From: Paracamarosporium sp. OC-R06-R3
Taxonomy: Eukaryota; Ascomycota; Dothideomycetes; Pleosporales; Didymosphaeriaceae
Length of the DNA stretch: 52,849 nucleotides
NCBI GenBank assembly: GCA_019828545.1
Contig: JACVRA010000574.1
Span: forward strand, 1 to 52,849
Direction: 5' to 3'
Shown: piece after piece, positions 7,302 to 41,410 of the stretch
Position numbering within the stretch: the first letter of the stretch is position 1
How the letters are laid out: every line of letters starts with the position of its first letter
Translations under genes and position numbers: made by a program
Notes under the pieces: generated by a model
Seen by the model: only the letters and a program-made list of their open reading frames with translations
The model's database searches: none
What the model was told of the DNA's origin: nothing

Positions 7302-9676
7302 ATGGTTTACTTTGACGATCTTGCGGCTTCCAACGCGGGAGGCTTGAATACTGTCTCACTTGAAGATGCAGTGGAGGACTACGAAAAAGAAGGTGTTAAA
7401 CGAATGCTTAAACGGTGGAAAGCGTATGCTGCTACAAAAGCCTTGTATAGTCATTTTCTTACATCTGTAAAGATATGCTGAATACCTCCCTCCGCCAGCA
7501 AAAGAAATTGAAGCCGTTGCCCCCTTTAGTCAACCTCCACAGATCAAATGGGTCAAGAACTACTTCGTCATGAGAGTCAGAACTGGAAACGCGAAGCTAG
7601 GTACACGTATAGCACTGAGTACTCTAATAAAGGAGTTTGAGCAGCTACGCCGCACGCTTCGCCTCAAACATGATTTCGAATGGAACAATAGAGAAGTCAT
7701 GGAGTTGAAAAAGGTATTACAAGGAAATTTTTTCAAAACGACTGTATGCTAACAGATCGTTCAGCACATCAAGAATCTCGCAAAGACAGAAGGTGCTTGC
7801 ACTGCCATGAGACCCAAGACTATAGCGTACGCCCTCGATGCGGATGAGATCCAGTTCTATGTCTGGAATTGCAGTGAGCGTGTGCATACGCACCCGAGAA
7901 CTATGGTACAGCTCTCCTTCTGGCTTGATATAATTTCTATATGGGGCCTGCGGACGGGTGAGATTGCCGAGTCCTCGAGTTATCGAAAGTCTAATGAAGG
8001 TTTTCACTACGGCGATGTTTCCTTGAGCCTTACACGGTGGGAGGATCAACTACGCTATGAAATACTCATCAATCTACGGAATCGTAAGTTTTGTAGGGAT
8101 GATGAAAGCAAGGTGTAAGTCTGAGATGCTCACGTATGTTTTCGCACGCTGACATGAGTGGCCAGGAAGCAGATCCCTCTGAGAGAGGAGATGGACCCCA
8201 AGCTACGTTTTCGGTGTCCTGTTCGAAAATTCCTTGCCCTAGCCCTCGCTGACGACGTCTTTATTGGGTACAAAACTCCGGAGGATTTCGAAAATCGCTC
8301 TATCCACGCCACGGCAGGTTCTCGTCCCATCGGCATTCGGGAGGACAAAAAGCGCCTACCGATCTTCCGCAAGCTTCACGGTAAAGGCATTTCGGAAACC
8401 TCCATTATGAGCTCTACTTCGGCCGGCACACTTCTCAAGCAGATATGTCAGGAATGCGGTTACATGGAGCCTGTCACAACATATACGTTCCGACGAGGCG
8501 TCGCAAACAATGTGGAAGGTAAGTGTGTCTCGAATTGAGGGAAGGGGTTTGCTGACGTGACTGTTTGAAGCAAAAGCAAGCCAGAAAGCAACCAAAGAGA
8601 TGTTGGGACATAGAGGTGATCGCACATGGCATGCCTACAGTGCACCTACGATGGGTGTCGATGCTCAAGCAATTGCATATGGTCAGCCAGAAGATGAAAC
8701 TGCTACTCGACATTCACAGAGCATCTCCTATACCCGAGACCATGCCGCTCCGAAACCAGTAAATTCTAGACTCGGGCCTCAAGCTGTGCCTTCTCGTGCT
8801 ATCATAGATATGGTTAAAAGTGCCAATCCGAAGGACAACCTGAAGGAAATCTTGAGGAAGGCATGCCGCAAGCAACTGGAGCTTGACCAGAGGGAATTCC
8901 TTGAAAAAGCGAAGGGCGAGGTGTTTACAACAGTGCTTCAGACCAACTCTACTATTGAGCCTTCTCCAGAAGACACTGCTGCAAGCCCGACGAAAACAGT
9001 TCAAGTCCACGTCCGACCCCGTCCAACGCCAGAATTTCTTCACATGCTGAAGTACAATCCTCTCCAGAAGAGCGTTATCGAGGCATTGTGGACTGCCGAA
9101 ACGGCTTCCCTGAGCCAGTGCGTCCGGCCCTTGATGCTTTTGTCTAAGGGCGAGCCTTTCCGAGCTTTCTATCCCGACCCAGTCTTGCCGCCTACTGAGG
9201 AGCATTTGTGTCCGTATTGTACTATGAACCTCAACAAAATCAAGTCATCAGAGTGGGCTTTGCATCTACTAAGATGTCATAGCTTAAAACATAGTGTCGG
9301 ATTCTGTTTCGACTGCACGCAGTTCTACAGCCACGGACAAAAGAGATCACATAACTGCCCAGCTTCGACTTATTCAAGCGAAATCTATGGCTGCATCTAC
9401 TGGCGCAATCTGCTAATACGTGAAGGAAGGTGCCCTTACGGCGCCGGGAACTGGTGTCACAAAGACCGGTGGCAAGATAAACAGCAGCTTAAGAAGCATG
9501 TACAGTCACATATGCAAGCCCTTCCTAACAAGGATCTAGCATGTCCTCACGAAACGTGCAGAGTCTTTGGTTTGACAAAGGTCGAATTGCAGGAGCATTT
9601 TCACTCAGTCCATAAGATTTTCTTCTTCACAGGGCAGGGTTTCGTGTCGGGCTCTCAGAGTTCGTCGGAGGACTGA
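7302..9676 (+). CDS. DUF3435 tyrosine recombinase, Starship 'captain' (726 aa, five exons)
   Basis: Exons 7302-7423, 7473-7713, 7756-8114, 8166-8518 and 8571-9676 join in phase to 726 aa with no internal stop. The catalytic part follows the DUF3435 pattern: GLRTGEI near residue 186 (first Arg box), CPVRKFLALALADDVFIG near 260, PIFRKL near 310, then YTFRRG with Arg350/351, MLGHRGDRTWHAY with His372 and candidate nucleophile Tyr381, and the family's DAQAIAYGQP segment. The C-terminal third holds several Cys/His clusters (CPYC at 572 with a later H..CH; CPYGAGNWC near 646; CPHETC with H..H near 683-706), probably zinc fingers for DNA binding. The family cuts and joins the ends of Starship elements. 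The start at 7302 is the first ATG giving a sensible N-terminus; the frame is open further upstream. All residues expected for activity seem present, so the captain may be functional. Confidence 0.9.
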
Positions 9677-10652
9677 ACTCTATGTCGAGTAAAGGATAGC
9701 TGAAAGCACTTGAAGCGTTCAATTAGGGATCGGATAGATTGTTTCATGCGTTTTTAGAAAAGCACGCTTAAGGTTGTTCTGGATATTAGATAGACTTTCC
9801 CGTTGGTGCGCATGACGTCGCTCAGATACCGTATAGGACGGCAGGGAATATCAAATGTGCTTGGGCAGCTTTGCAGAACACATCATCCATAGAAAGACTA
9901 CCAGCATACAAACCTCTTGCTGCAATACAGGCAGCGGCAGGAAAGCACATCCTGTTTACAGACATACTGTACAATTGCTAAACGACCGACCAGTCGTAGC
10001 TCACGGATCGCGGACGGAAGCATACGAGAGCCTCGTGTCCGATAAGGCTGAGCACGCGGCTCACGGCTTGCATGGTGTTATACGGACGATCTGTGACCTA
10101 AATTGGGTTCCCGGTCGTGGAATTTCATAACTGCTCCTATACAGATCACCAAATCCAGAATAGAGGAGATATGTCGCACGGAAACTGAGTCTTTACTTTC
10201 TATCAGTCAGACTTCCAATTCACAGAGTCGTTTCATGGTTTCGCCCAGTGGGCGTTTGGACCCCAAAGGAAGATGCGCGGCGGCCCGAAATGGGTTCCTA
10301 TGATTGAAAATTCGAAGTGCATTTTCGAAAAGTGACATTTTAAGGTATAGTTTTTTGGAAGTCGGGCTTTGAGGATAAGGAAGCAAACTATCACTTTCGA
10401 GACAAGGCGATAGTTGCGATCCCGAGCACTTGCAACTGTGGGACCAAACGGAGGCTGCTCTTGTGGACGATACCCCGCATCAATGTTTGGCCGGTTAGCT
10501 TGTCGATGTTGCTGAGTCAACCGAATTGCTGCCGGACCAGCGGCGTTGTCAGTTGTGGCTGGCGTCACTGTGGCTTAACGCGTCCCAGTTTTCTTGGCAA
10601 ATTGGCCGAAACAAACCCGACAATCGTCTTCTCTTCTCCCCATATAGCGACA
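9677..10652. other. Intergenic, no gene seen
   Basis: Only short uninformative frames occur. Around 10310-10340 a motif of the form cgaa(aa)gtg-cattttcgaaaagtg is partly repeated in tandem. The last 100 bases hold a pyrimidine-rich leader before the relic at 10653. Confidence 0.35.
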
Positions 10653-12240
10653 ATGAAGCGAGCGCTTTCGTGTTCTGACCTCGATCAGATTTGTAGCCGT
10701 CCTCCCTCCCCGAAACGCCGCAAGCCATCCCGCTTCAGCAGCGATCGCTGCTGCCCGCGCACTACAAGATCGCAATCTCCGCGAACGCGGTCTCCAACGC
10801 CTCGGACTCTACGAGCTCATCCATCGCAATCATACCAAGAGTCTCCGGGACTCATCGAGGAGTGGATACGCGATTGCGTCAGATACAGTGAAGCAGAAAT
10901 GGCTCCTTCACAGACGCCAAGCGTTACCTCGAACGAAAGCGGCCCGAGAAGGACATCAAAACTAGGATACCGGCGACAGCGGTCGCAGAGCCCCAACAAG
11001 AAAACAGGCACCCAATATTGAACAAGGAACATGGCTGATGCAAGCATCTTTATTGACCATTTCCCCGAACCCCCTCTTGACGTAACGCATCAACTGAACA
11101 ATATATTTGATGTGTCGGCGCTGGAAGACATTGGGAAAGCATTATTTAGTCATCCTCTATTGGACGTACCGCTAGCACAATCTGGGGTTGCAGAACTCGC
11201 GGGGAGATACAACAGGAAGTCAAGGCAACTGGCGAAGGACTGTGCCGGAGAAGGCTAGTGGAAGAGCTGTCTGCTGTCAGGTCTTATGGAACCGATGCAA
11301 GAGCTATGGCCAGATATAACAAAGTTGAGCGCATTAGAAAAGCGTATGTTTTCTGCATTCACTGTAGCGACGTGTCTGATCTTGCTACAGCATGGATTCC
11401 TAACCTTAGGCCGACCCTACTGACTTTTGAGGATATATTTGCCTCCGGTCGTCCTCTACCTAGTCCTTACGAATTTTCTACCCCATCTGAATGTTAGCCT
11501 TTTCTGGCACAAGATCCTATCCTCCCACGCACGCCGGTCCTCAGCCCGCCTTCTAATGCTCCGAGTGATTGCACTACCGACGATCCTAATCGTGTCTCTA
11601 TACCCAAGCCAGATATAACTATCGGTTTTTCTCATGCCTCTTTCTCCAAGCTCTAGGGCAAGATACTATGGGAGCTTCAGGACAATGGTCGCGTCTTTAG
11701 CGAGCCGCACCAGTTGGGAATTGGGTTGCATTTTCCTTTCTTGATTGTAGAAGTGAAGGGCTTGGCGGTTGGATCGAATATGGTCGGAGCATAGAATCAA
11801 GCTGCCGTCGATGCGGCCTGTGCTCTCAACATTCTGCGCGACTTGAAGGCCGCTACGAGCACTTCTGCGCATTGCGCTTCCGAAAACCCGTCTTCGTTAA
11901 GGGAGATTCTCTTCTCGATAGTGACAGAGGGGCCTCTTTATGAACTGTGGGTGCACTATCAATCAGATAGTGCGTATCATATGACTTTACTACGAATATG
12001 GCGTACTACGAGCAAAAGCGAATCAAGAGAATTTGTGCAGGCTTTGGGGAAAGTACTGGAATAGGGGGTGTCTAGCTTTAGGAATGCTGTTCTCCAGCAA
12101 CTTATTACTATTGAAACTATGTTTCAAGAGCGGAGGATAGGATGAATACATTGTAATTCCTAACCTCAGGCCAACCCCACCGTCTGTTGAATTTCCAACA
12201 GATCTTCTTGTCACCACTGACTTCCTACGTACTGCGAAGC
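10653..12240 (+). pseudogene. DUF7924-type gene inactivated by RIP-like nonsense mutations
   Basis: The start MKRALSCSD and a basic, Ser/Pro-rich N-terminus (SPKRRK) lead to YRRQRSQSP and then FIDHFPEPP. The C-terminal core reads HFPFLIVEVKGLA, NQAAVDAACALNILRDL, SIVTEGPLYELWVHY, HMTLLRIWRTT and FVQALGKVLE, the pattern of the fungal DUF7924 family. The reading is interrupted by TGA at 11019 (TQY*TRN, expected Arg), TAG at 11256 (GEG*WK, expected Gln), a TAG inside GA*NQAA near 11791 (expected Gln) and TAG at about 12062 (LE*GV, expected Trp), plus others and apparent frame changes at 11.3-11.7 kb. CAG-to-TAG, CGA-to-TGA and TGG-to-TAG are all C-to-T or G-to-A transitions. Family function is unknown. 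It is dead as a protein gene unless undetected introns bypass the stops, which is unlikely. Confidence 0.7.
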
Positions 12241-12879
12241 AGCCTGCAATATCTTCATAGAGTGTGGATGCTTACCTGCGGCCTGTGCAATGGATTCTTT
12301 CCGTAATGGCTAGGGGTTAGCACATCGGCGTCTTGTTATTATTAGTCCTTTCGAAGCCGACCAGCTGCTGCCGAAGATTTCGCTGTTAAAGACGGTGACT
12401 TTTACACCTCTATGCACCCCGATCAAATTGGATCTACGATCCGCTAGATTACCTTGAACCCCACTGTGCCGGTCAGAGACTCTCAAATCATGCAATTAAG
12501 TCTTTTTGCGGCCAATTGTACTTCAAGTCACACGGAATTATGCCGGAGTGCAAGCTGATAGATTCATTCTGCCACATGCTGGAGATTGGATATTGAAGTG
12601 TAGTCCTGTGAGGTTTTTACATGAGTTCATCACGATCCGACGGGAGGTTGAAGTCACGGAGAAGACGCAATTGGGTAAAGTCTTATGCGGAGGACTGTTA
12701 GAAGAGGGTGATTTTGAATAAATTAGCAGCAACGTGGCAATGATCTGTACGATTTAGCCACATGGACTTCAAACACGGTCACACAAAGAAAAGGCGAGAA
12801 CGTCATAAGGCGTGAGCGGTATGTGAAGCGGAAGTAGGCCAGTGATTTGTGAGATGCTCATAGGAGAAAGAGACTCGGC

Positions 12880-13016
12880 TTCCTATCGGTGAGCGTTAAT
12901 GGCGTTCACTACAGGGGACACGTAGTATATACTACTTCCTGTAATTAAGGCTGACATTGCTGGGAAATTCACTCGAATTGTGATGCGGTCACCGACGATA
13001 TCACTTCGCTAGGAGA
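12880..13016 (+). repeat. Dispersed repeat, copy 1
   Basis: About 137 bases match 20444-20587 in the same orientation. Shared blocks include tctatcggtgagcgtt-like, ctacttcctgtaattaagg and gaattgtgatgcgg. Differences are scattered and many are transitions. No coding capacity. Confidence 0.75.
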
Positions 13017-14221
13017 TTAATTTGGCGTATAGATTAGAATAACATGCGTGTTATTAGCCCCAGGGGTCCATCGTTCAACCTATATCAACATCAGTAAGGG
13101 CGGTCTTCGCTTAAGCTTCTTTTCCGGCCGCCTTCTATGGTCATGAAACAAATCAAGGATCTTGAAAATGTAGATTGAGCGCTGTTGTAGACATCCTTCG
13201 TCAATCTGCAACCGCCTATCAAATGAAGGGTTCGTCGGAGCCCGGACATCCATACGACACCAAGTCACTGCAACGATGCTCATCTTGAGGGCTGTAAACC
13301 GCATCCCACACAATGCGTTATCCAACTGGAAATCTGGCTCACTAACTCCACTGTGGACTGCTCCTATTCCTTTGTTGTGCATCATGGTGCTGTCAGTAGG
13401 CCCGCATTCCGGTGTAACAATTGACCTATCAACACCCTGTATCCAGTCCCCATTGCAAGGCTTACACGAGGGACAATTAGGACCTGGTACCGCCTCATGT
13501 GACATCCGCTGCCCTTGCCAATGGCCTCATGATGACACATTGCAAAATACTATGTCGGAGAGGCTGATCCACCACGGGGGCTGTGGCAGAGTCCATCTGC
13601 CAATCCTGTCTCGCTATACCCTGTCATTGTCACAGAGAGCCTACGAGGGCGGGATGAACCAGACGTCCTGACGAAAGCCTGGCGCAGGGTCCAGACTATC
13701 CCGGTTGCATGACATGGCAGTGGCGTAGTGTTCATGCGGTGGACCTGAACGGGCGGAACAATATCATTCGACTCGCGGATAATTTCAGAATGAGTAGGCT
13801 TAGGCAACAGCTGGAACAAGCATATTACTCCTTGACCCTAATTTCGGCGATGTAGGATGTCATGTACATTATGTCCGATGTCAGGGGTACCAAGGATCCT
13901 GTTTCAACAGCTGCGGTTCTGAAGGCGAGCCAGTAAAATGGAGGGGTGGATGGGGCGTAGAAGCATGGAGAAAGGGAAGGAGTTGAGAGTCTGGGTATAA
14001 GAAAGATGCTACCTCCCATGGAAACACTCACCAACATCATTCACCTCTTGACCCATCAATCGCCCAAACTCTGCAACATTGATGACCAAGTCTTCACAAA
14101 GCCCTTACCGATCCTCCCTCTGCGCGAGACAAGCCCTCCACCTTGAGATCGAGCGTATACTAGACGATGTGGAAGTCATCGATCTCAAATTGCCAGCTCT
14201 TTAGGTTCTCAAGGTAAACAT

Positions 14222-15499: not shown

Positions 15500-16671
15500 T
15501 CAATTGCGAGCCTCCTTGCGCAGAGCCATGTACTCTTTGGAATGCAGGATCACGGAAGCAGATGATCTCTTCTCTACATCCAGACTCAGCAGCAACCGCA
15601 ACATATTTTTCAACACCTTGGGAGCATCCATACTGCCCAATTGTTGCTCCAAGGTAGGCATGGGAACAAGGGGCTTGAGAGCGCGGGCCTCAGAGAATAA
15701 TTCTTGCAGAGACATACCCCTACGGGATTTCTCCCTAGCTGGATTTGGGGTCCAGTCCGGGTAGATCTGCATCAGTTGAGTGATTTCCACTGTGTCGAGG
15801 GTGTGTCGTCCTTCTGGAAATTGGTATTGGAAGGCTTCTAGATTGAACAGCCTCAGGAGCGTCATCCCAAGCGCCCATATATCAGAGCAATGATAATGAC
15901 CCTTTCCCTCCACAACTTCAGGAGCACACATCCCAAAGGAACCAAGCGCCCTTTCGTCAAAGCCGTTGTATGTTGCTAGGCTTTAATCAGTATCATGGTA
16001 GAAGATGGACATGCAGGGCATATTTACCACACCCGAAATCTCCAAGCATAACTTGAAACTTGCCCGCTTTCGGACTGTTGACGAAGATGTTGTCGGCTTT
16101 TATGTCTATAGTTTTTTAGCTATAGTTTTGTTGTCATAGGTCTCTCATCTCACCTGCGTGCAACCAATTGCCTAACTCTACTGTAGCAAGAGCATCCAAA
16201 ACCCCGGTTACAACTGCCTCAAAAAGTACGATATCCTTCTCGCGTGTTTTTGTGATGCTCTGGAGGGTGTCCTGCGCCCACTCGAAAGCCAGACAGCGGA
16301 TGCCCTTGCCGCTGTTCTCTGGCATGGCTTCGTCCTCAGATTTGATGACGTCGAGCAGACGCCTGATAGAGTGGCACTGAGAGAACTCAGGTTTCATGTA
16401 TTGCTCATACTCGGTCTTGAGCTGCTGCACTTGATTGGAAGGTGCTGTCTTGATCACAGCCCTGGTTAGAGATTCAGTTTCATAACACACTTGCAACACA
16501 AAGTATGATGGCATACCATTTTGGAGCGCTACCAGAAGTGTCGCCAATAACCTCTGCTTTGAAGCTCGAACTACTTCCCCAGTCATTGGGCAAACACTCA
16601 GTTAATTTGTACTCCCAGTACTTTCCGGGAAGCGTCTGTCCGAGGCGAAGTGCGAGAGCAGAAGAAGCCAT
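15500..16671 (-). CDS. Divergent protein kinase (338 aa, four exons)
   Basis: Exons 16671-16517, 16461-16154, 16105-16028 and 15975-15500 join in phase to a complete single-domain kinase. The beta-3 lysine is in KWAVIK (Lys56), the catalytic loop is HADIKADN (His153, Asp155, Lys157, Asn160), the metal-binding motif is LGDFGC (Asp177), and the activation segment ends CAPE (198-200). CSDIWALGMTLLRLF follows as subdomain IX. The HRD Arg is Ala, and I see no GxGxxG loop in the N-lobe, which instead has a GSSSS stretch. There are no extra domains and no membrane segment. It presumably phosphorylates Ser/Thr, but the substrate is unknown. The gene diverges from the one at 17116 over a 444-base promoter. 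Catalytic residues are intact, so activity is plausible. Confidence 0.85.
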
Positions 16672-17115
16672 GTTTCTGATGAAGGATGGATAATGGCCAA
16701 CAAGAGGCGAGGGGCGCATAGTAGTGCGTTTTTGGTGAGTAGCGTGGTTGATGGTGAAGAGAGGAAGGGGAAAAGAGAGGGACAGCTGCGAGCGAATAAA
16801 TATTCCCACCCCACGTATCACGTGATTGCATCGTCGGAGTGCCCGGACGTTGGCATACAAATCCGGAATGTTAAGCAGGATGATAAGACATCCCCTTTGG
16901 GAAAGTGAGGATACATGATATTTCATGCAGCAAGGATATGACAGGGGAGCGAGCAACCTTCCTCCCACACCGTATAAGCCTCTCCCAACCACTGTCCACC
17001 TACTGTCCATTTTCTCTAACCAACTGTCCACTTTCTCCCGCACACTCCCCACCTTCTATCATCATCTGATACTCTTTCACGGCCACCCAGCATCTTACCC
17101 CATCAACCTATCATC
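16672..17115. promoter_or_regulatory. Divergent promoter between the kinase and the 17116 gene
   Basis: The two start codons point away from each other. On the plus side gtataagc at about 16971 is TATA-like, followed by a long pyrimidine-rich leader with ctgtccac repeats up to the ATG at 17116. The minus side has no clear TATA element. Confidence 0.45.
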
Positions 17116-17676
17116 ATGAGATCTCGGAAACCCATGACTTTCGACGTGGCCATAGCCAAGTGTGAGCAATGGGTAAAGAAGGTGGAGGCCCAGCATGCCA
17201 TATCGCCCAGAGATGAGAAGCGGTTAACAGAGGCAGCCAAGATATTGGAGGTGCCTAAGTCGATCCCATCTCCGTATGGGTCCTACCTTCGTCAGGTCCA
17301 AAGCACTAGCGGCAGAGGGCTCGTACTGATCATCGCACTCGCACTGGGTAAGACCGGATTCCTAAATATGAGAAACGAGCACAAAAACCGGATTCCGAGC
17401 GAGATGAAGAAGCGAAACTATAGGTCAGGCGCCCTCACGATGCTCGTGGAGAAGTACTTCGCACAGCCTGCAGACGATCACCATGGCAAGGCAGAATCAG
17501 AATCAGAATCAGAGGCAGAATCAGAACCAGGATTAGGGTCACAATCACGAGATGTTCGAGCCACGTCACCGGAACTCATGCAGCAAGCAGGGTTTAACGG
17601 TTCACTGTTCAATACAAACCCAACAGAGCGACAAGCTGAAGGAAGATTCCCACAAGCAAGTATGCCAATCGCTTAG
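17116..17676 (+). CDS. Uncharacterised 186-aa protein with a Ser/Glu repeat
   Basis: A single open exon runs from an ATG with a C-rich leader to TAG at 17674. The N-terminal ~110 residues look folded (alternating charged and hydrophobic positions, a LVLIIALALGK segment near residues 68-80). Residues ~124-140 are a Ser/Glu-rich run encoded by tcagaa repeats, and the tail is polar and probably disordered. There is no signal peptide and no recognised domain. The strong leader and TATA-like element argue that it is a real gene. Confidence 0.5.
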   Translation: MRSRKPMTFDVAIAKCEQWVKKVEAQHAISPRDEKRLTEAAKILEVPKSIPSPYGSYLRQVQSTSGRGLVLIIALALGKTGFLNMRNEHKNRIPSEMKKRNYRSGALTMLVEKYFAQPADDHHGKAESESESEAESEPGLGSQSRDVRATSPELMQQAGFNGSLFNTNPTERQAEGRFPQASMPIA

Positions 17677-17921
17677 GGGGGGAGGCCGCCAATGGAAAAG
17701 AGCTAGAAGCTAATATAGAGACATCACCACAGGCTTTCAAACAGGGAACGTGTACAGGCTTACATCCCTGCACGCTCTTCGGATGGTAACAGAGATCCTG
17801 ACGCATGAAGAGGCGTGCCCAGGGCAAATAATACTAACGGAAACAAGTCGCACCGATTCTTTCGTGACTATCCCTGTTTCGGACTCGCTCTGTCTGTACC
17901 TGCGGCAAGCGGGCGAGCAGA

Positions 17922-18340
17922 TCATGTAACTTTGTTCTCCTCTGTCGGCACGAGATACCTTACGCGGACGTCGCCCATAGTGTAGTAATACCAAGCCTTT
18001 TCCCATCGCATGATAACCAGGTCGGTGAATGCCTTGTTGTCTCCTATCTTTGCTATTGACTCCACGCCTAGGCTGTTGGTGGCGGGTGCGCCGACATGGA
18101 TGGCGCCACCCCGACCGAAGATGTCAATAATGATAGCTACGGCATCCGGAGCTGTTGTGTCCTTGGTCGTGTCTTTTTTCTCCTGGACGACGATGTACTG
18201 ACTGGGAGCTATCTGCAGCAGATCAGCATTGTTGCAGGCAGGTGGTGTCCGGTATAGAGATCTACATGTGTCCTGCATAGCTCTGCAAGCTCGCTATGGG
18301 TGGACGGCTTCGGAGCACTTAGCCGGCGCTCGCTCGACAT
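17922..18340 (-). CDS. Small uncharacterised protein (121 aa, two exons)
   Basis: Exons 18340-18266 and 18212-17922 join in phase across a 53-nt intron with gtagat donor, TGCTGAT branch and ctgcag acceptor. The protein starts MSSERRLSAPK and contains IAPSQYIVVQEKKD, AIIIDIFGRGGAIHVGAP and MRWEKAWYYYTMGDVRVRYLVP, a soluble alpha/beta look with an aromatic C-terminal strand. No signal peptide. I do not recognise the family. Without the splice the frame breaks, so the intron model matters. Confidence 0.6.
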
Positions 18341-18996
18341 AGGAGGTCTGATCAAGTTGAGATGGGGTAAGGTGAAGGTAAGGTGAAGATGGAGACGGGA
18401 TGTAAGAAAAAACTGGGGCAGTGCGGGGCAGGTTTTCTCGTCACCTGACCTAAGGCACCGAAACAACGCCCAACCTCCAGCATTTAGTCGTAAAACATTT
18501 ATCGCTCCACCTACGAGCAGAAGGTCGATTTTGATAAGTTAGGCCTGTCATATTTGTACACCCCAATTTACTCGGCTCACACTCTGTCGGGCTACTATAG
18601 TGGTCATAGTGCCTTTAGAGTTGTCCGATGAGCTTCAATCTATATGTTGAAGGGGATATACGTCGCTGGCAGTAGGCGGGTTTACGTGAAAAGATACAGC
18701 TTGGTTTGGGGCCGGTGGAATATGTGTAATAGAATGGGGGTGTACGCAAAGTGATTGGGGGTGTCCAAATATTATACACCATTATATATATAGGGTACAA
18801 ACGAGTGTGGAGGTTTAACACAGTGATAAAAAAAATGGAAAAGCAACCAACAAAAGCGCGATAGAGCGCAGCACATCGAAAAAGAATGTCCATCTTGCAA
18901 ATCCAAAATCGCACCAACCAACCAACCATCACCAACATCGTCAATGCATCCTCCGTCAAAGCTCATCCGTCTACCTGAGGGCCCGCAAGAGAATGC
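18341..18996. other. Intergenic, no gene seen
   Basis: It contains an ACCA-type short repeat (caaccaaccaacc near 18914) and A-rich runs. No coding frame is supported. Confidence 0.4.
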
Positions 18997-19467
18997 TTAC
19001 TTGGCCATCTGTTGGAAAAGCGTTAGTAAACTCGCTTCTGCGCTCAAATCTTTCAGTGTCTTACTGTCTGAGCTCCCTTGTCCTTGGTAAGGTGAGCATT
19101 CTTGATCTTGGAACCCTTGTCATCTACAGCATCAATGTCCCAGTGAAGGTCCTTGTGGTCGCTTGCATGGTAAGCCGGGTTACTGCAGTGGCTTAGTAAG
19201 GGGTAGTTCAATCGAGATGGGGACAAGGGACACATACGTGATTTCCAAGTAGTGCGTCTTCTCTAAAATGGACTCGCTGAAGAGGTTCTTGTACGTCTCA
19301 AGCGCCTCCTTTGCCCTGGTCATCAGTTCATCTTGAGCAGTCCTCGTGATCGCGGGCATAGCCCCCTCAGGGCGGACGTAGCCACTGCCCGTCGGTTTGA
19401 TGTAGACATCCATGGAGGCTTTGCGGACCACGTTGGTCACAGTTCCGACGAAGTACTTGGAGGACAT
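18997..19467 (-). CDS. Small uncharacterised protein (119 aa) with a 12-nt last exon
   Basis: Exons 19467-19238, 19182-19065 and 19008-18997 join in phase. The second intron has a canonical TTACTAACG branch and ccaacag acceptor, leaving a terminal exon that encodes only Met-Ala-Lys and stop. The N-terminus MSSKYFVGTVTNVVRK is not a signal peptide; the rest is polar, ending DKGSKIKNAHLTKDKGAQT. Skipping the last intron would add about three residues before a TGA, so the tiny exon hardly alters the product. No family recognised. Confidence 0.6.
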
Positions 19468-23632: not shown

Positions 23633-23700
23633 TGTGTTGAGGAGAAGATAGAGTGTTATTGTTTGGGTGTGTTAGAGCCAAGGCAACCTGATCACTGGCC

Positions 23701-23710
23701 ATTTATAGTT
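23701..23710 (-). promoter_or_regulatory. TATA box of the secreted-protein gene
   Basis: The minus strand reads aactataaat here, about 70 bases before the ATG at 23632, followed by a C-rich leader ending ctcaacaca-ATG, a normal strong fungal core promoter layout. Confidence 0.5.
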
Positions 23711-24426: not shown

Positions 24427-26318
24427 GCCCCTCTCAAAGTAATGATCTGGCCCGGTCAGCCTTAAGCATAGACGTCATCGCTCGTCCTCACAAGCAGCAC
24501 GATTTGTCTGGAAGTCAAGACTATGGTCTTGATTCCAAAGGTTCTCATAGCCCTGGAGTAGTATAAGCATTGCTCGGAACCGTTGCACATCATAATGTGA
24601 TCTATTAATCAGTAGACGGATTCTCACAAATGTGTAAACACTAGTTAATCTCGGAGCGTCTACTCACCTTGCGCTCTGTGTAGGAAATCTGCTTTGAATG
24701 TGGACTCATCTCATAATACACGAGGAGATAGATGGAACGGAATATTGTGACCAAAAGACTACAGTATCACAGACGTAGATTTTAGTCAATCGTAATCACA
24801 ATCGTAATCACAATCGCATGCTTCGGAACCTTGACACGCGTTCGCACTGCCGCCAGATCTCAAAATCGTTTTTGACAGTGAAGCGCCGCAAAATCAAAAA
24901 GCAATCTCAGCCTTGATGTCCGTCCACTAGCTCCGAACTCAATGGCAAGCATCACATAAATCCAAATTCAAATATCCGCTTTCACCATAAACTTCATTGA
25001 CTATCGCAACACCATGTCTTAGATGTGACAAGAAGTGGCAAACGTTACAGTAGCAGCGGATGAATCCCACAAAAACGAAAATCCGATCCCGAAGATTTTC
25101 TTGCAGACCGTGCCCCAACATGGTGGGGCTGACAGCATATGGCATTGCCTATCTGGGGGATCTGCCATGGCGCTCAGGATCTTATTTTCAGAAAATTGAT
25201 AATCGAAATTCAATCTTAAGAATCCTAATATGATCGGTTCCATGACGAATGCTTTGCATTATACCCTATCAGGATAATCCTCCGTACTTAGAATACTGTG
25301 CCACATGTTTGATATCATAGAGCCCCATGAACCTTTCGTTAACGGAATCTCGGATTTGGCGAGGATCAATCGACTCGCGTAATGATCGGCAATGCAACGT
25401 TAGTGTGAACCTTGTCTTGAGACAGCCAAGGATAGCGTAGGGTAATCGGTCTGTCTAACGCGTGAACCCCTGCAGCGCGGCGTAGCGCCAAGGTATCGTT
25501 CCGCCTGAATAGTTATCTCCGAAGCCTCTAGGACGGAACGTTCATAAAAGGGTATTGGTCGGCTAACGTCGCTCTATCATCCTCTTTTTGCCGGCCCGCA
25601 CGTATCGACACCGATGTTGCGCTACATCCCTATCAACACCCAGATCAAGAGGCGCTTGACCGACATGCTGCAACGCTCACAAGAATCCTTTTTACGTTGG
25701 AAGCAGGAACATAAAGAAGAAAAGACACGTCGTTCAGAGGAACGGGCCCAACTCTACGTATCAATTCCTAACGGGGGACACTGGAGCGAGTACTCTCCGG
25801 TTATTTGAAGAGACTGGAAAAGACCAAGTAAGAGAACCTTGCTGAAGGGTGACTGTACTGATACATGCAGAATTACTCCTTTCTCGGAAAAAAGGACTTA
25901 GCTACACGCCGTCCTAAGATCATCCGAGCAATTTTTTAGAAGTGACTTCCAAAGACAGTCCGAGCGTTTCTAGACAGACGAAAACTAAGTCACAGGCTTG
26001 AAAGGCTATGCTTGTTGTCCTTTCATCGATTGTGTCCATAGCTGCGAATGAATTCTCTTCTTTACTGTGATCACTATCCGTGTACGCGCCTGGTCTATTA
26101 CATTGATTGAATCCCCTTACGGGGCGCTTGGTCACACCCTTGTAGCTCCGAAGCGCGCACCATCTACGCCTCCTACGCGCTGCTGCGCCGAGGCTGATTC
26201 CGAAGACGTGATCTCATCGCCGTCGAAGTATTTATGACCGTCCTCCGGGTTATCGACGCCGATACTCAGAACTATCACGCTTTCCACAAGTTGTGCGATA
26301 GCAGCTCTTCTTACCATC
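24427..26318. other. Mostly gene-free
   Basis: Probable upstream exons of the preceding gene occupy part of 24480-24720. A 64-codon plus frame (25614-25808) starts MLRYIPINTQIKRRL and is charged, but it is short and unsupported. The minus frames at 24939-25243 and 25920-26431 lack domains. Confidence 0.35.
24788..24817 (+). repeat. Short tandem repeat (12-nt unit)
   Basis: The unit aatcgtaatcac occurs twice in direct succession, followed by a partial third copy. Confidence 0.7.
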
Positions 26319-27269
26319 ATGCACACACAACACGGAGCCTCGCACGCGAAATTGCAAGCCCTTCCATTATCTAGACGCACACGATCACAATCTGTGCCCC
26401 CAGGCTGGCGACCACGCCGACCGGAGATCACGAAACGTCCACGAACGTTCCTCAGCCTCCCTTATGAGCTTCGCCATAAGATCTATGGATACGTGTTCCA
26501 AAATACGCTGATACACATCCGCCGCCGTCGGCTCGTCAACAACAACGAGGAGAATTCCCACTTTACTTGGGCACCATGCATCCAATCATCAGCAGATGGT
26601 TCACTTTGCTTCAGCCCGACTCATAGCTGGCAGCACGCTTCCAGACTGCACAGAGTCCAGGACGCAGGAGTATGTGGCCAAGCGGCGGAACACAGGGCAA
26701 GAGCGATCATGAATACGGCACTCATCTGGACATGTCGTACAACAGCGTCGGAAGCTATGGCCGTCTTCTGCAGCGTGGCAAATATTGCGTTGGATATCAA
26801 CGATAGTCCTGGGTGTCTACGTCACATAGGCTCCATTGGGGGTTTGCAGATTCGAAGAATAACCCTATGTGGCAAGCTAAGTGCGACGAACCCACCTCCG
26901 TTCGAGTCAGGCTTCAGTATCACTCGAAAAGCTGAGACTTTCGACTCTACCCCTCTGTTAGCATACTTTCCAAACGTTTCTAGCATCACGATTCAAACGT
27001 GTAGCCGCTTCAATGACTGCCGAGCTTGGAACTTGTGGCACAGGGCAGCAACCGACAGCAAAGTTCAACAAGTCGAGATCACCATGATCACAAAGTGCTG
27101 GAGCCTCGACAATCTCCTCGTTCGTCGGTGGCAGCGAATGAGTCATGCGCAAGAATTATGGGTACAGGATAGTATGCGATGTGTGTTACATCGTACGTGT
27201 CGAACGCTATCAAGACTACCGGAAGATCCCGATGATACTACTGATGATGAACACTGGTATATAGACTAA
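26319..27269 (+). CDS. F-box-like fungal protein (316 aa)
   Basis: A single open exon. After a basic, disordered first 40 residues comes FLSLPYELRHKIYGYVF (residues ~46-62), matching the L-P-x-E-L-R-x-x-I-Y start typical of fungal F-box-like proteins. The rest includes RTTASEAMAVFCSVANIALDI and LLAYFPNVSSITIQ, as in the strand-rich regions of these proteins, and an acidic C-terminus. F-box proteins recruit substrates to SCF ubiquitin ligases, but only the N-terminal motif is visible. The start at 26319 is the first ATG of the frame; a shorter start is possible. A frame on the opposite strand is a shadow. Confidence 0.6.
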   Translation: MHTQHGASHAKLQALPLSRRTRSQSVPPGWRPRRPEITKRPRTFLSLPYELRHKIYGYVFQNTLIHIRRRRLVNNNEENSHFTWAPCIQSSADGSLCFSPTHSWQHASRLHRVQDAGVCGQAAEHRARAIMNTALIWTCRTTASEAMAVFCSVANIALDINDSPGCLRHIGSIGGLQIRRITLCGKLSATNPPPFESGFSITRKAETFDSTPLLAYFPNVSSITIQTCSRFNDCRAWNLWHRAATDSKVQQVEITMITKCWSLDNLLVRRWQRMSHAQELWVQDSMRCVLHRTCRTLSRLPEDPDDTTDDEHWYID

Positions 27270-27275
27270 CTTGGC

Positions 27276-27734: not shown

Positions 27735-27890
27735 CAGTATAGAGCGTAGTAAATCAAGGCTTCCGGAATCGAAAATCGAAATATGGGATCTGAACTTGAA
27801 GTCTCCGGAAGATTTTCGGGGTTACCTGTCGCATTAGTAACAGTTATCGCAGCCGGGACAGCTCCGATGCTTCCGCAGCAGCATCTGAAA

Positions 27891-28646
27891 ATGTTTTCTT
27901 TGATCGTATTGACATTAAGCCTGTCCATAGTCCACGGTCACAGTTGGGTTGAAAGGGTATACGTTGTGAAGGAGGGGAAATTAGTTGGAGAGCCCGGCTT
28001 CCCGCGCGGCAATGGTACGATATTGGTCGTTGAATCTAAGCCCAACGCTAAGATCATGTCAATAGTTCAACGCACTCCTACGTTCTTGGATTCCGACATG
28101 ACATACCTTCTACCGCCGGCCGGAAGAGCAAGGAATGAAATCCTCCCAAATGATCTCGCGTGCAAAGAAACTCAGAGAACTAGAAACTACACAGATTACA
28201 GTACCATGCTCGTAGTACGGCCAAACGACCATATCCGATTGCTCTATCAGGAGAACGGGCATGTTACTAAGGTGCATGATGATCCACGCCGTAATGGAAC
28301 ATCTGGGATGGTTACTGTGGTAGGTACAAGACATGCCACAAGCACTGACACGCTTCAGGATATCCTTGATTCCTCGTTGACCGAAAAGACCACCCACACC
28401 TCCAACTTCGACGACGGGCTATGCTACCAGGCGAATGGCTCACCTGAGGCTTTGAGGCGAGAAAGACTAAGCCAGCGGCCTCGCTTGGAAGTAGAAGGCC
28501 CAGATGTGTGGTGCGGACAAGACTTTGTGATGCCCGGTTCCTTGCAACCACACGATATTTACACTTTGTATTGGATGTGGGATTTCGATGGTTGGGACTT
28601 CAAAGAACGATACACAACATGTCTTGACGTTCTTATTGCTAGCTGA
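27891..28646 (+). CDS. Secreted N-terminal-histidine protein, DUF7492 type (251 aa)
   Basis: I start at the ATG at 27891 because it gives a clean 16-residue signal peptide (MFSLIVLTLSLSIVHG) followed directly by HSWVERVYV. An exposed N-terminal His after cleavage is the hallmark of copper His-brace proteins such as LPMOs. Further motifs match the DUF7492 family: GFPRGN near residue 33, LYQENGHVTKV near 120, FDDGLCYQ near 175, VWCGQD near 202 and YTLYWMWDFDGWDF near 222, with a final YTTCLDV. The frame is open upstream of this ATG, but that extension would bury the signal peptide. A copper-dependent oxidative role is inference. Intact, single exon. Confidence 0.72.
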   Translation: MFSLIVLTLSLSIVHGHSWVERVYVVKEGKLVGEPGFPRGNGTILVVESKPNAKIMSIVQRTPTFLDSDMTYLLPPAGRARNEILPNDLACKETQRTRNYTDYSTMLVVRPNDHIRLLYQENGHVTKVHDDPRRNGTSGMVTVVGTRHATSTDTLQDILDSSLTEKTTHTSNFDDGLCYQANGSPEALRRERLSQRPRLEVEGPDVWCGQDFVMPGSLQPHDIYTLYWMWDFDGWDFKERYTTCLDVLIAS

Positions 28647-31560: not shown

Positions 31561-33228
31561 TCAGCAATACCTACCACGCGCTGCTTTGCTTGCTTCTGAT
31601 TCCTCGGGTCGAAACCCGGTCATGAACAGGTGGATATCTCGCTTACTAGACTGTACTCCCTTTCTGACTGCGCTCTCGAAGTGAGGGTTGCCACACACTG
31701 CGATTGTCAATGTTGGCCTGCCCAGAGCACGTACATAATCTTACCTGACACGGCTGTGTTACCACCTTCAACACCAGCTTCTCCATCAATCTCAGCGCTA
31801 AGGTCCAGAATCGTCGGCGTTCTCAAGTAACGTAAGTCCTGGGACTTGAATTCGGTCACCCCGATAGTGTATATCTTCAAGACGAAGATTTGGTGGCCAT
31901 CTGCGTTGTGGTTGTCGATTTCTTGGAGGCGGCGTAGAAAGCGGTCGGCCCACCTTTCTTGGTCTGATATTATCTTAGCTTAGTGGTTACAAGGGCTACA
32001 ATCAAATTTACCAGGTGATTCCAAGAACCAAGTGAGTGCTATCCTTCTGACTCGGACAGACTTATCTTTATGTGCTTCAAGAAGTTGACGTATGTGGAGT
32101 AGATGGGCGGCAACTCCAATCCCGCTTGCTAATAGCAGAACCTTGTCGTACTGGCCCAGTGATTGAACACGTCCGTACGGGCCGTCGATCATGGCAGAAT
32201 GGGTCATTGCATCTGAAAGTGTGAATATCGCGTTGCTGAAGCCTTTGCAACGTTCCAAAAGAATGGTTATGTGTTGTCCGTCGATCCAAGCGATAACGTA
32301 CGGATGTGACTGAACCAGTCCAAGGGTGTGAAAGGAAAGTCTTGGGAGCGTTATGTATATGTATTGTCCAGGTCCTAGGTCACAGCCCTTGTCGTATTTG
32401 ATCTCTATTGCCATGGCTTCGAGAGAATCCGGTGCAGATGCATTGAATTTTTCAACACTTACGATGGGTGTGGACCGCCCGCTAGACGATCGATGGATCA
32501 GTTTCACCAGCCAGATGATATGCTGCAACAACCAAGCAGCCGACGCCACACCCAAGCAAGCCATCGCGAGAGTAGAATAAAGTCGAACATGAAACCATAG
32601 AAGAATGGCTAAGGCCAGAGCGAATATCAAATGCGTTTTGAGGAATACCTCGTACATGTATCTTCGGATATGCAAGAAGGATAGGCATCCTAGAGCGACC
32701 AGCGAAGAGAGTATCTGTTCAGGTCAGAAAAGATCTCGCCATAAATAGAGGACCTACTACTATCTCTAAAGTAGAGGATGGCGACGTTGCGGCGTTCAGA
32801 ACACCATGAATCAGTCCTTGGAGCACACATACACGTCCTATCCAACGATGAAGGAGAGAGTATTCGTTGAGTTGAAGACGGAATATCCTGTCGACAATAA
32901 AGTTTGTTCGCCCCCCCAGGTATAACGGGATGACATTGATAATGAACAACCTTCCGCATCGTTTGGCGATCTCAGCTCGGCTTTGAACCCACAAAGTGCA
33001 GGCTGTGACGTTTGCTGCGCCGAACAGCAATAGATTCAAACCAGCAAACAGGCTAACATCGGAGGAAGTTCGCAAACGTCGGACTAGCAACGCGTACAAG
33101 AGCCGTTTGCGAATGAACGACACGATCGCCTTGCGAGTAGACCTATCGATCAGTCGCCAAACATTCCAGAAGAACAAGATGCCCACCGCCGATGCGAATG
33201 AAAGAGAATAGATGGAAAGTAGCTGCAT
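31561..33228 (-). CDS. Ferric reductase / NOX-like transmembrane oxidoreductase (509 aa, four exons)
   Basis: Exons 33228-32758, 32714-32012, 31963-31745 and 31697-31561 join in phase to 509 aa. The N-terminal half holds about six hydrophobic helices with the paired heme histidines of this superfamily (HRWIGRVCVLQGLIHGV; HIRRYMYEVFLKTH). The FAD-binding loop is SHPYVIAW near residue 255, followed by DGPYGRV and SGIGVAAHL for NADPH. The C-terminus keeps SVCGNPHFESAVRK. It should move electrons from NADPH across a membrane to ferric iron. FRE genes are one of the recurrent Starship accessory families. The protein is shorter than typical FREs (600-700 aa), mainly for lack of an N-terminal extracellular domain. 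The divergent neighbour is the MADS-like gene. No inactivating changes are seen. Confidence 0.85.
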
Positions 33229-34646: not shown

Positions 34647-34805
34647 GTCAGGTTGAGATCTCGGTACATACAGTCTTGTCAGATCTTGCTTTGCACGTAA
34701 CTAGACCTCTCACACTCATTATGTACTTGTTATTTTTCTGAATTTTTTTTGCGTGATGCACTGAAGAATGTCGCGGAGAAATTTGTGAAACATGAGTTAA
34801 AAGAT

Positions 34806-37800: not shown

Positions 37801-38030
37801 TAACGCTTACACCCTACTTGTCGGAAAAGTTGCAATAATCGTTCTGTTGCTTTGGGTGATTCTGTTCGATGGTTTCGGCGCATCGAATCTTCGAAGCTTA
37901 ACTCGGAGAATTGAATACGGGCGAAACCCAAAGTACATTTCAACTTGAAGAGAGTCACCTCAGGTGTTTCCTTTGATTGATTCATTTTACTTGGTACCGC
38001 CAAAAAATCCATTGCATCGAACCAGATCAT
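34806..38030 (-). CDS. DUF3723 protein with C-terminal coiled coil (1041 aa, three exons)
   Basis: Exons 38030-37236, 37186-36224 and 36173-34806 join in phase across 49- and 50-nt introns. The DUF3723 signature is clear: LVECQDGLHRISAAKKYLP then DRWWIVRL (residues ~117-145), YSDGHIFRNIRLAY near 190, GLRCPEELLNYL at the first splice, and IRCGRP near 536 with YVKRDLLHAFFGK near 580. Residues ~610-760 form a long coiled coil with a recent 32-residue tandem duplication. The C-terminus looks folded (YWKGGSEWLRGRF, FRATQYWIPLKKA) and ends in a basic RKFGIELDSTKRQR. Its function is unknown, but DUF3723 is one of the gene families repeatedly found in Starships. It is convergent with the MADS-like gene and divergent from the phospholipase. 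Start could be 38030 or the next ATGs. No stops. Confidence 0.87.
35546..35737 (-). repeat. 96-bp tandem duplication in the coiled coil
   Basis: Copies 35546-35641 and 35642-35737 are almost identical, encoding two 32-residue units around LITELRAQLVETNIAKEH. The two differ at very few bases, so the duplication is recent. Confidence 0.9.
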
Positions 38031-38305
38031 CTATGTGTCTCCTACCGCTCGCTCACATCGTCGTGAGGCACGATCACGAGGACGTTCCTAATCCCGTTAG
38101 GCTAGACCAGCCCTCAAGCGGTGACTTCTGGTGCGAAATTGGGAAAACGGATTTCGGGTATTGGACGCACAATTTCGGCTTTTGGTTTTCGGTGTCGATT
38201 TCTTGCGAAAGTCATCCTAATTATGTGCCGTGTAATATAGCAGAGTGGGTGGAAGCACAACTATGAGGGCGCTTTCCCTGCTCCTTGCCCTTTACAAACC
38301 AAAAG

Positions 38306-41300
38306 ATGTCCACCTATCCTTGGATCAGCGTCTCTCGAGAGAACGACGTTTTCGAGCTTTGGACTCACAGAATTTCACTATGCGACCTTGGCCCTGGCCA
38401 AGCTCACGCAACCGTCAGCTTGCCACTAATTACTTTTGTGGGAACAACAAAGAAGTCGATTATTTTGTCGCGAATACTCGGCCATTCACGAACTTTGCAA
38501 CCCCACGGTCAGGTTCATTTAGCATGTCCCAGGCTCACTGACAGTTTCAACTCGGAAATATACATCGACTGTGAGCTTAATGCGGAAATTCCACCCGCCC
38601 GCCCTGGGTCGCCGGCGTGCGTATCGCAACCAATAGTGGAGTCAGACTCCGCCCTGAATATCGGATACAGTCTCATATCTAATGTTTTTGCACCCTTGTC
38701 GGACGTGGTCTGCTACTTTGCAGCCGACCTTCGCGGCATCCCTGGGATATGTAGCATATTGGCGTATCAAGCAGTTCAAGCAAAATCACACAGCCTGCCT
38801 GTCCGCGCTTTGCCGATGGCGCTGATCGTCGTGGAAACTCGAGCAGCTCAATTTGATCACGCGGGGGTGCAGCGCAAACTCTACAACATGGTGTTAGAAG
38901 AGATGAACCGGCTTAAGAAATACACGAATAGAGAGTTAATCGAGGTAGATCTGAAGTCTAGGTATCGCGACATCTGCGTCTTTGGAATTCGTAAGGACGG
39001 TCCACTGTCTAACCATGCTCAAAGCCTCCGGCAGCGCATCATGTCTCTCAGTAAAGACGTTCACGTGGGTCGGACCTTCTCCCGTCATTTGTTTAGCTTG
39101 AAACATATGGAAACACTCGCAACGCGTTTATTGCAACGATTCTGCACAAAGCAGTCATGCTTTAACTTTGTCAGAGCGACGAGGCCGAAAGACTTCAGCT
39201 ACAAGGACACCTCGCTACACCTTGCAGAGCTGCTCGCGGTGATGCCAAACCACTCTTGGATATGGTCCGTCGGTGTACCACTTTTCGCTTCCACGATATT
39301 TCTACCAAACTATCCTCCTGGAGCTCACGGTACGTGCTGATCCAGATACCTGAACATTTGCTGATCTTAGTAGCCTTCCTACCAGAAGATTTGTACGAAG
39401 AGTTCTACGCTGGCCAATGCATCAAAGCAATCGCAAAAACCATAAAGGTTGGAGACCAACGAACACGTTTCGTTGACCTTGTAAAAAGCAAATTGAGAGA
39501 ACAGTTCCAGCAATATGAAGATGACCGGTATGGAAACAGTGCCATTAAGCAGCACACTGAGACACTGAAATCATTGTGGCCACATCTTTCAGAAGTGAAA
39601 AGTTTTCGGACATGCCTTTCCTGTTTGTCATATAGACCGGAGAAGGTGTTTGACTGCGGTCATGCTATATGTAACATCTGTGTTCGAAGGTTTGGCCGGC
39701 GGTCGACACTTTCGCGCCACTCGTTTCAGTTACCACACTGCATTCTTTGTGGTCGAGTTCAGCCGGGCGAGAAGACGATAATTGATCTTGTGCCACCATC
39801 AGCAGGTATAAGAGTATTGTCTATCGATGGTGGAGGTGTACGAGGCGTTATTCCACTTATTCATCTTGACCACATGGACAGGGAGCTGCGGATCCTTGGC
39901 AGCCCTATTCGAAATTTCTTTGATTACGTCGGCGGTACTTCTGCTGGTGAGTCCTATCCACAACCATCCGGGAGTCCTAACTAATAGGCATATAGGCGGA
40001 CTGGCTGCGATTGGGGTCTTCCTCATGGAATGGACCCCGAGAGAGTGCCTCAACCGCTTCGAGGACATAGCCTCAATAACATTCAAGTCTAGTCATGATA
40101 AGACTTTCTCTCTATCCCGAAGATTCCACAGCCTGCTTCGTACCTTCCTAAGAGATCACCGTTACAATCTTTCGCCTATCGAGAGGGCTTTCGGGGCGGG
40201 TTTCGAGACTGCTAGGAAGATGTTCAACCCTCTCCGAGTGGACACAAAAGTTGCTGTCACGGCTACAACGGTTCGGGGAAACATCCCATGTATACACTCG
40301 AACTACAATGGGCCACGATCTGAAGAGAATAGTAAGTCATTATTCAATCGGGGCGGGAAGCAGTGCTGACGATCAGACTACCAACATATTCGAGCAGAAA
40401 CTTTTGGCCACGATATATCGATCTCCGATGCGTAAGTAAGAGACCGCACATCCTTTTCAAAGCTAAAAATTGCCTTTAGTGCAGCTTGTACCTCTGCAGC
40501 ACCCTATTACTTCAAATCCAAGGATGTGCATGACCTTGACACTTACCAAGATGGTGGCTTAACGCATAATAATCCTGTTTTCATAGTAGCTTGGGAATGC
40601 GCGCGAATATGGCCAGATAAAGGTCGAGTATTCGAGACTGATAAGTGCCGAATCGATCACCTCATCTCATTAGGAACAGGAACCTCACAGTCAAACCGCT
40701 ATACCGTCGGACCGCATTCACCGAAGAGAGACCGATTCTTCCATCGACTCGCAAGTTGGGCATCAGGCTCTTTGGACTCAGAAGACTTCTGGAAGCGGTT
40801 CTTGAGCTGTGTACCGGAACTGTGTCGTCCTCGCTGCCTTCGCCTTAACTTACAGTTTCCTGGTCCGGAGCCAGCGCTCAACGACGTAGCCTCAATTGGT
40901 AAGCTCAAGGAGCAAACTAAAGACGCAATTCGCTTAGATTGGAGAGTTGCACAAGCAAAGGATTTTATCATTGCAGGCGTATTTTACTTCGAGCTCGACA
41001 AGTTTTCTCGCGTGGAAGGAGGTGCATATCAATGCTCCGGTAACGTTCTCTGCAGGTTACCGTTGGACGTTGAAGGTCGTAAATCTTTCTATGCTACCTT
41101 GCGCAGTCATTCAACTACCTTCACCGTTCAGGGCCGTACAGTAGCAATTGTAGATGACGCGCCTCATGGAAGCCCTCCCTTTCGGTTGATGCTGAATTTT
41201 GTTGTGAAAAGTATGGAGGATAAGAAGGATAAGCTGGACATTTCTGTAAAGGGAGTCACCAGTCGACCGATGCTGATCAGTGGCATGCCTATCGGCTTAG

Positions 41301-41410
41301 GCGATTTGATTCAAGCGCAGGGCCTCAACGCGCCCTTCGGATGCGTTGACGGCCACGTAGAACGGCCACTTCCAGCTATTCCCTCAAAACGAAAATTACA
41401 TCAACTTTAA
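38306..41410 (+). CDS. Patatin-like phospholipase with RING-like domain (973 aa, five exons)
   Basis: Exons 38306-39329, 39371-39946, 39996-40331, 40377-40431 and 40480-41410 join in phase to 973 aa. Residues 1-400 form the N-terminal region usual in large fungal patatin proteins (SLISNVFAPLSDVVCYFAADL, IVVETRA, LPNYPPGAH). Residues ~423-470 have C-x2-C, C-x-H, C-x2-C and C-x2-C spacing, a zinc-binding RING-like fold. The patatin domain follows: oxyanion loop DGGGVRG (494-500), nucleophile Ser532 in GTSAGG, and catalytic Asp688 in DGG. It should hydrolyse acyl esters of membrane lipids. PLPs are recurrent Starship accessory genes and, in NLR-type proteins, executioners of cell death; an immune or conflict role here is inference. 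Catalytic residues are all present. The 55-nt fourth exon is small but phase-consistent. Confidence 0.88.

What the first reader, a model, noticed from the sequence alone, without database searches (positions are those of the whole stretch)
7302..41410. A probable Starship giant transposon with captain and three classic accessory genes
An intact DUF3435 recombinase points into a region that also holds ferric reductase, DUF3723 and patatin-like phospholipase genes. Starship surveys established these as linked accessory families. All four appear intact, so the element may be recent or active.
Basis: partly seen in the sequence, partly recalled or inferred. Interest (0 to 1): 0.92.

Follow-up and report, generated by a model that had tools for sequence, protein, structure and literature searches.

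The report
Giant fungal transposon in tRNA gene
This stretch of a fungal genome holds most of a giant "Starship" transposon with an intact recombinase and three typical passenger genes, and it appears to have inserted itself into the start of an alanine tRNA gene, a kind of target that was not found described for these elements in the papers that could be searched.

Summary
In detail: an intact 723-aa DUF3435 recombinase starts at 7302; readable ferric reductase, DUF3723 and patatin genes follow, the last ending at 41410. The Starship reading is well supported, but presence/absence between strains could not be tested.

The new result is the left edge. 310 bp before the captain's ATG lie the first 20 nt of a tRNA-Ala(AGC) gene (6972-6991), without the rest of the gene. 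The genome holds 9 such 5' pieces. Seven belong to whole tRNA genes; the other two are this one and one on contig C31, and both join the same Starship left end at the same base. On C31 a whole tRNA gene follows 5.2 kb downstream on the same strand, so the relic sits between 20-bp direct repeats. Best reading: a Starship lineage that integrates into the 5' end of tRNA-Ala genes and rebuilds the tRNA at its far side, as bacterial islands do.

The element is at least 45.9 kb; its right end is off the contig, and C263:50068 is only a candidate. No TIR was found and activity is not shown. No tRNA-targeting Starship turned up in the searches, but the founding Starship papers were not held.

The parts
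6972..6991 (+). First 20 nt of a tRNA-Ala(AGC) gene without the rest: left attachment repeat
   Evidence: 20 of 20 nt identical to whole tRNA genes; only copy in the window at up to 3 mismatches
6968..7307 (+). Block shared with C31:18547-18886, 305 of 340 identical
6992..7301 (+). Left terminal stretch of the element, between tRNA piece and captain ATG
6855..6930 (+). Weak match to the 5' flank family of tRNA-Ala genes, at the expected distance before the tRNA piece
   Evidence: nhmmer E 0.015; window-C258 flank alignment z 6.4, co-linear
7302..9676 (+). Captain: DUF3435 tyrosine recombinase with C-terminal zinc-finger-like region, 5 exons, 723 aa
15503..15982 (-). Protein-kinase-domain piece
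   Evidence: PF00069 E 1.3e-8, over cut-off
26238..27266 (+). DUF7730 protein (2EXR below cut-off)
27753..28643 (+). DUF7492 protein
   Evidence: PF24320 E 3.4e-51
31561..33228 (-). Ferric reductase, 508 aa
34806..38030 (-). DUF3723 protein, about 1000-1040 aa
   Evidence: PF12520 E 4.6e-71 and 1.8e-43; open models
38306..41410 (+). Patatin-like phospholipase, 973 aa
   Evidence: PF01734 E 1.5e-22
52819..52844 (+). Terminal motif of a repeated transposon at the contig end, where the assembly stops inside the element

Best explanation
Window 6992 to beyond 52849 is a Starship whose captain integrates by site-specific recombination at the first 20 nt of tRNA-Ala(AGC) genes. Proposed mechanism: the excised element carries a copy of tRNA nt 1-20 as its attachment site; the captain recombines it with the same 20 nt of a chromosomal tRNA gene. 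The left junction keeps the old tRNA 5' flank plus nt 1-20, followed by the captain; the right junction is the element's right end plus nt 1-20 plus the rest of the tRNA, so the tRNA is rebuilt, not destroyed. SHOWN: readable captain and accessory genes; the tRNA piece exactly at the left edge; a second locus (C31) with the same left end joined to the same tRNA piece, and a whole tRNA gene 5.2 kb downstream in the same direction. INFERRED: that C31:23770 is the right junction of the C31 relic, that the window element has a like right junction elsewhere, and that the captain makes the cut.
For: 9 places match tRNA nt 1-20 with up to 2 mismatches (7 exact, 2 with one mismatch). All 7 tRNA 3' halves pair with one of them, leaving 2 orphans, window 6972 and C31:18551. 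Both orphans pass into the same left-end sequence at the same base, while the 60 bp before the shared block are 30% identical. About 8e-5 such 20-mers are expected by chance in the genome, and about 4e-4 for one of 7 whole genes within 5.2 kb downstream on the same strand. The C31 orphan's 5' flank resembles those of whole tRNA-Ala genes on C258 and C337 (z 28, 17), the window's that of C258 (z 6.4); the proposed displaced tRNA C31:23770 shows no co-linear flank match. Rfam finds no whole tRNA in the window. Captain at the 5' edge, with catalytic-type motifs kept in homologues.
Against: The right junction of the window element is not on the contig. No TIR between the left ends and the two candidate right ends. 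C263:50068 as the displaced tRNA is not supported by the contig ends, which carry different variants of a transposon end; its unrelated flank proves little, as C18 and C37 also lack the shared flank. AAAC before both orphans, also before C337, leaves the crossover point open. The flank family also occurs at 2669-2894 without a tRNA, which the simple picture does not explain. Flank z-scores used mononucleotide shuffles (60 per pair) on AT-rich DNA; the window-flank match is weak by profile (E 0.015). No empty site could be examined.
Confidence: 0.7

Rival explanations
1. Tandem accretion: the shared 5' flank of tRNA-Ala loci is itself the right end of older related elements, so window 1-6971 and the stretch before the C31 orphan are earlier insertions and the tRNA-Ala genes are stacking sites. 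(A variant of the best explanation rather than its opposite.)
For: The flanks of C126, C258, C337 and the C31 orphan match each other on the 5' side only; on the 3' side one pair exceeded z 4 (C126-C258, 4.2, not co-linear). A further copy lies at 2669-2894 (E 2.8e-21). A 22-bp motif of the left end recurs inverted in the flanks of C258 and C337, and C126 gives a longer, looser match; shuffles reaching the C31-left score: 10, 2 and 0 of 200.
Against: Against the window's own left end the same test gives 70, 11 and 92 of 200 for C258, C337 and C126, i.e. nothing; it was one of 36 comparisons and the flanks are related to each other. C337 has what look like ordinary genes 3-6 kb upstream (by eye).
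Confidence: 0.25
2. A Starship is present, but the tRNA piece is a chance passenger: a 340-bp block with a tRNA-derived start was duplicated between two contigs by other means, and the true element edge lies elsewhere.
For: The block is sharp on both sides and has two copies. C31 lacks the captain and its block runs into a stretch also found on C291.
Against: The block starts 4 bp before tRNA nt 1 at both loci, both lie behind tRNA-Ala-type 5' flanks (the window's weakly), and a whole tRNA-Ala follows on C31.
Confidence: 0.15
3. Not a mobile element: a solo DUF3435 gene in a gene-poor region that happens to hold the other families.
For: [quoted passage not shown] No empty site could be seen.
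Against: Three of four accessory families with an intact captain in one contig, plus the recurrent left edge.
Confidence: 0.07

Closest known systems
Starship elements (fungal giant transposons with a DUF3435 captain)
   Same: Captain at the 5' edge pointing inward, DUF3723 / ferric reductase / patatin cargo, length over 20 kb, site-specific type of target
   Different: Target is the 5' end of a tRNA gene; shared repeat of 20 bp, against direct repeats of 2-12 bp identified in 19 of 20 A. fumigatus Starships (PMC12153272, passage)
Osiris (Enterprise family) Starships in 5S rDNA
   Same: Target is a small RNA-polymerase-III gene; longer direct repeats (PMC12153272, passages)
   Different: Those are predicted to fragment the 5S gene; here the tRNA appears to be rebuilt at the far side, judged from C31
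Bacterial tRNA-integrating genomic islands / integrative elements (recalled)
   Same: Tyrosine recombinase, attachment site identical to part of a tRNA gene, tRNA restored at one junction, remnant repeat at the other
   Different: Fungal DUF3435 recombinase; the 5' part of the tRNA rather than the more usual 3' part (recalled)
tRNA-targeting retrotransposons of Dictyostelium and yeast (PMC5006619, abstract)
   Same: tRNA genes as a safe target
   Different: Retrotransposons that insert at a distance up- or downstream of tRNA genes, not inside by site-specific recombination
Crypton DNA transposons (recalled)
   Same: Eukaryotic tyrosine recombinase element
   Different: Small, without the cargo families seen here (recalled)

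Membership tests
Starship | DUF3435 tyrosine recombinase, intact, with catalytic motifs | tested here: met
   PF11917 E 3.6e-25; PF00589 below cut-off. GLRTGE, YTFRRG, LGH and TWHAY located; YTFRRG, the H, and TWHxY invariant in 6 of 6 rows, GLRTGE in the 3 rows that cover it. Catalytic roles recalled.
Starship | Captain first gene at the 5' end, transcribed into the element | tested here: met
   ATG 310 bp inside the left edge, plus strand, cargo downstream
Starship | Accessory families DUF3723, FRE, PLP, NLR | tested here: met
   Three of four found; no NLR domain among 35 window pieces given to Pfam, not all ORFs
Starship | Short direct repeats / target site at both ends | tested here: inconclusive
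   Left copy present; no right copy in the window. On the C31 relic both copies, 20 bp
Starship | Terminal inverted repeats (18 of 20 in A. fumigatus, PMC12153272) | tested here: inconclusive
   None between the left ends and C31:23770 or C263, but the window's true right end is unknown
Starship | Empty site or presence/absence between strains | not testable with these tools
   No relatives of this fungus are held (stated)
Starship | Length about 20-700 kb | tested here: met
   At least 45.9 kb, 6992-52849, contig end
Starship | Captain falls in a named captain family | not tested
   No reference captains held; 10 relatives found among the 7998 candidates scored, 6 with species names
tRNA-integrating site-specific element | Attachment repeat identical to part of a tRNA gene | tested here: met
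   20 of 20 nt at both orphans
tRNA-integrating site-specific element | tRNA rebuilt at one junction | tested here: inconclusive
   Whole tRNA at C31:23770 downstream of the C31 relic, Rfam E 3.2e-8; not seen for the window element

The most novel reading that the evidence does not exclude
A lineage of Starships, with a zinc-finger-tailed captain, has evolved the bacterial-island strategy: it uses tRNA-Ala(AGC) nt 1-20 as attachment site, spares the tRNA by rebuilding it, and uses these genes as repeated landing and stacking sites.
Probability: 0.5. Interest if true: 0.85.

Novelty: new variant of a known kind. Interest (0 to 1): 0.7.

Why it matters
Of the gene targets named in the passages read, 5S rDNA is the clear one, and the insertion is predicted to fragment it. 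A Starship that enters a tRNA gene and rebuilds it would have a gentle landing site conserved between species, which bears on how such elements cross species borders. It also gives a way to find the ends of these elements within one genome, without strain comparison: look for orphan tRNA 5' pieces.

Tried and rejected
(1) The 340-bp block as a SINE: only two copies found, no target duplication seen by eye. (2) A gene start upstream of 7302: homologues start at the same Met. (3) TIRs: none. (4) C263 joined to the window by one bridging transposon: the two contig ends carry different variants of the terminal motif, so no support. (5) Structure prediction of P0001 with four relatives: mean pLDDT 33.5, not used. 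(6) Other captains: the DUF3435 loci on C241 and C318 look broken by eye, and tblastn of this captain on the fetched stretches gave nothing below E 1. (7) A decayed ORF at 11.0-12.1 kb: no Pfam match in the two pieces tested. (8) ARAGORN (bacterial setting) missed the intron-bearing tRNAs. Rfam found the tRNA-Ala in 6 of loci L046-L052, not in C37. Ala(AGC) was named by ARAGORN for C337 only; for C31, C126, C258 and C263 it is inferred from identical exon sequence; C18 and C37 differ at one base and are probably another Ala anticodon (by eye). (9) The founding Starship papers (MBE 2022, NAR 2024, PNAS 2023, Genome Res 2021; identity recalled) were not held, so a tRNA target may be described there.

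Full report
What is in the window. The window is one whole contig of a 43.1-Mb genome in 337 contigs. The captain gene reads open from 7302 to 9676 in five exons and gives 723 aa; PF11917 matches the 726-aa version with E 3.6e-25. Ten relatives were found over two searches of the protein collection, in each of which only the 7998 candidates sharing most words were scored. Six bear names: Sporormia fimetaria (three), Didymella exigua, Massariosphaeria phaeospora and Aaosphaeria arxii; that these are Pleosporales is recalled. Two relatives confirm the start codon and first intron. The C-terminal part resembles C2H2 zinc fingers (profile match to YY1, E 9.4e-4).

Cargo. Ferric reductase 33228-31561 minus (508 aa), DUF3723 38030-34806 minus and patatin-like phospholipase 38306-41410 plus (973 aa) are readable; the DUF3723 models need non-consensus donor sites. 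PMC12506042 (passage) names these three and NLRs as the Starship accessory genes. Also present: a kinase-domain piece, DUF7730 and DUF7492. No RIP signature across this range.

The left edge. A genome-wide DNA search with the window in three pieces gave one match ending at the captain start: window 6968-7307 against C31:18547-18886, 305 of 340 identical, with no third copy. The first 34 positions are identical; the 60 bp on either side are only 30% and 18% identical. The block opens with AAAC followed by GGGCTTGTGGTTTAGTGGTA. Rfam found a tRNA gene starting with the same 20 nt on C31, 5.2 kb downstream, and no tRNA in the window.

Counting the tRNA. With up to 2 mismatches the 20-mer occurs 9 times in the genome, 7 of them exact. 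The tRNA 3' half, with up to 3 mismatches allowed, occurs 7 times, all exact; each lies 23-90 bases behind one of the nine 5' pieces on the same strand. The two 5' pieces without a 3' half are the window's and C31:18551. ARAGORN names the intronless copy on C337 as tRNA-Ala(AGC); Rfam supports 6 of the 7 whole genes. About 8e-5 exact 20-mers are expected by chance in this genome, and about 4e-4 for one of 7 whole genes to lie within 5.2 kb downstream on the same strand.

Flanks. Comparing 600 bp 5' of the tRNA start among all nine loci (36 pairs, 60 mononucleotide shuffles each), 7 pairs exceeded z 4: C258-C337 57, C31 orphan-C258 28, C31 orphan-C337 17, C126-C337 13, C126-C258 11, C258-window 6.4, and C31:23770-C18 4.3, the last not co-linear. 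On the 3' side one pair exceeded 4 (C126-C258, 4.2, not co-linear). A profile of four flanks finds window 2669-2894 (E 2.8e-21, no tRNA behind it) and 6855-6930 (E 0.015, at the expected distance before the tRNA piece). So the C31 orphan clearly, and the window orphan more weakly, sit behind tRNA-Ala-type 5' flanks, while the whole tRNA behind the C31 relic does not.

The C31 relic. Right of the shared block, after six bases of the captain's reading frame, C31 passes into a stretch 84% identical to C291:21032-21255, by eye the 3' end of a methyltransferase gene. A HET gene (PF06985 E 8.2e-17) and a kinase-like gene (below cut-off) follow, then the whole tRNA. I read it as a related Starship that lost its captain by an internal deletion.

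Mechanism. Best reading: the captain recombines an element-borne copy of tRNA nt 1-20 with the same stretch of a chromosomal tRNA-Ala gene; the left junction keeps the old flank and nt 1-20, the right junction rebuilds the gene. The left junction is shown at two loci; the rebuilt right junction rests on C31 alone and is inferred there from position. For the window element the right junction is off the contig. C263:50068 is a candidate because its 5' flank is unrelated to the shared family, but the contig ends give no support, and its neighbouring genes, an oxidoreductase and a possible Zn2Cys6 factor (below cut-off), do not decide.

Against. No TIR, no empty site, an unexplained flank copy at 2669-2894, and a second possible reading of the shared flanks as right ends of older elements, for which the inverted-motif test was suggestive with the C31 left end and negative with the window's.

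Known or new. In passages of PMC12153272, 19 of 20 Starships have identifiable direct repeats of 2-12 bp; repeats over 6 bp are generally associated with 5S rDNA, which the insertion is predicted to fragment. Searches for Starship together with tRNA (and, of which 15 of 37 papers were listed) gave no paper that, by listing or passages seen, reports a tRNA target. The Starship paper holding the word once, PMC13373834, uses it for a tRNA-modifying enzyme (passage); PMC12691639, on a yeast killer toxin, holds both words and was not read. The founding papers were not held, so absence from print is not established.

Noticed in passing
window 2669-2894: Copy of the 5' flank family of tRNA-Ala loci without a tRNA behind it (nhmmer E 2.8e-21).
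   Followed up: partly
window 15514-19317 and C325:133566-136436 (L031): Matching pieces in the same order at 66-78% identity, perhaps shared cargo or a source locus.
   Followed up: no
window 44743-45866 and C207:21390-23343; window 46231-46607 and C170:8389-8755: Cargo-side stretches with relatives of 70-74% identity on small contigs.
   Followed up: no
window 29-501 and C258:228478-228973: 81% identical stretch near the contig's left end.
   Followed up: no
window 846-1787: Pieces of a fungal rhodopsin-domain protein (PF20684 E 1e-13 on the first piece), apparently broken, left of the element.
   Followed up: no
window 11022-12137: Decayed ORF pieces in changing frames; no Pfam match in the two pieces tested.
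   Followed up: partly
contig ends, e.g. C265:52819-52844, C263:4-29 and 62115-62140: Terminal motif TACCGTGTC-N8-CAATGCACG in two main variants, 80 places, many within 31 bases of a contig start: a transposon that limits this assembly.
   Followed up: partly
left end about 107-128 bp after the tRNA piece, and tRNA-Ala 5' flanks at about -101 to -79 (C337, C258): 22-bp motif in inverted orientation, a possible recombinase-binding site; weak statistics.
   Followed up: partly
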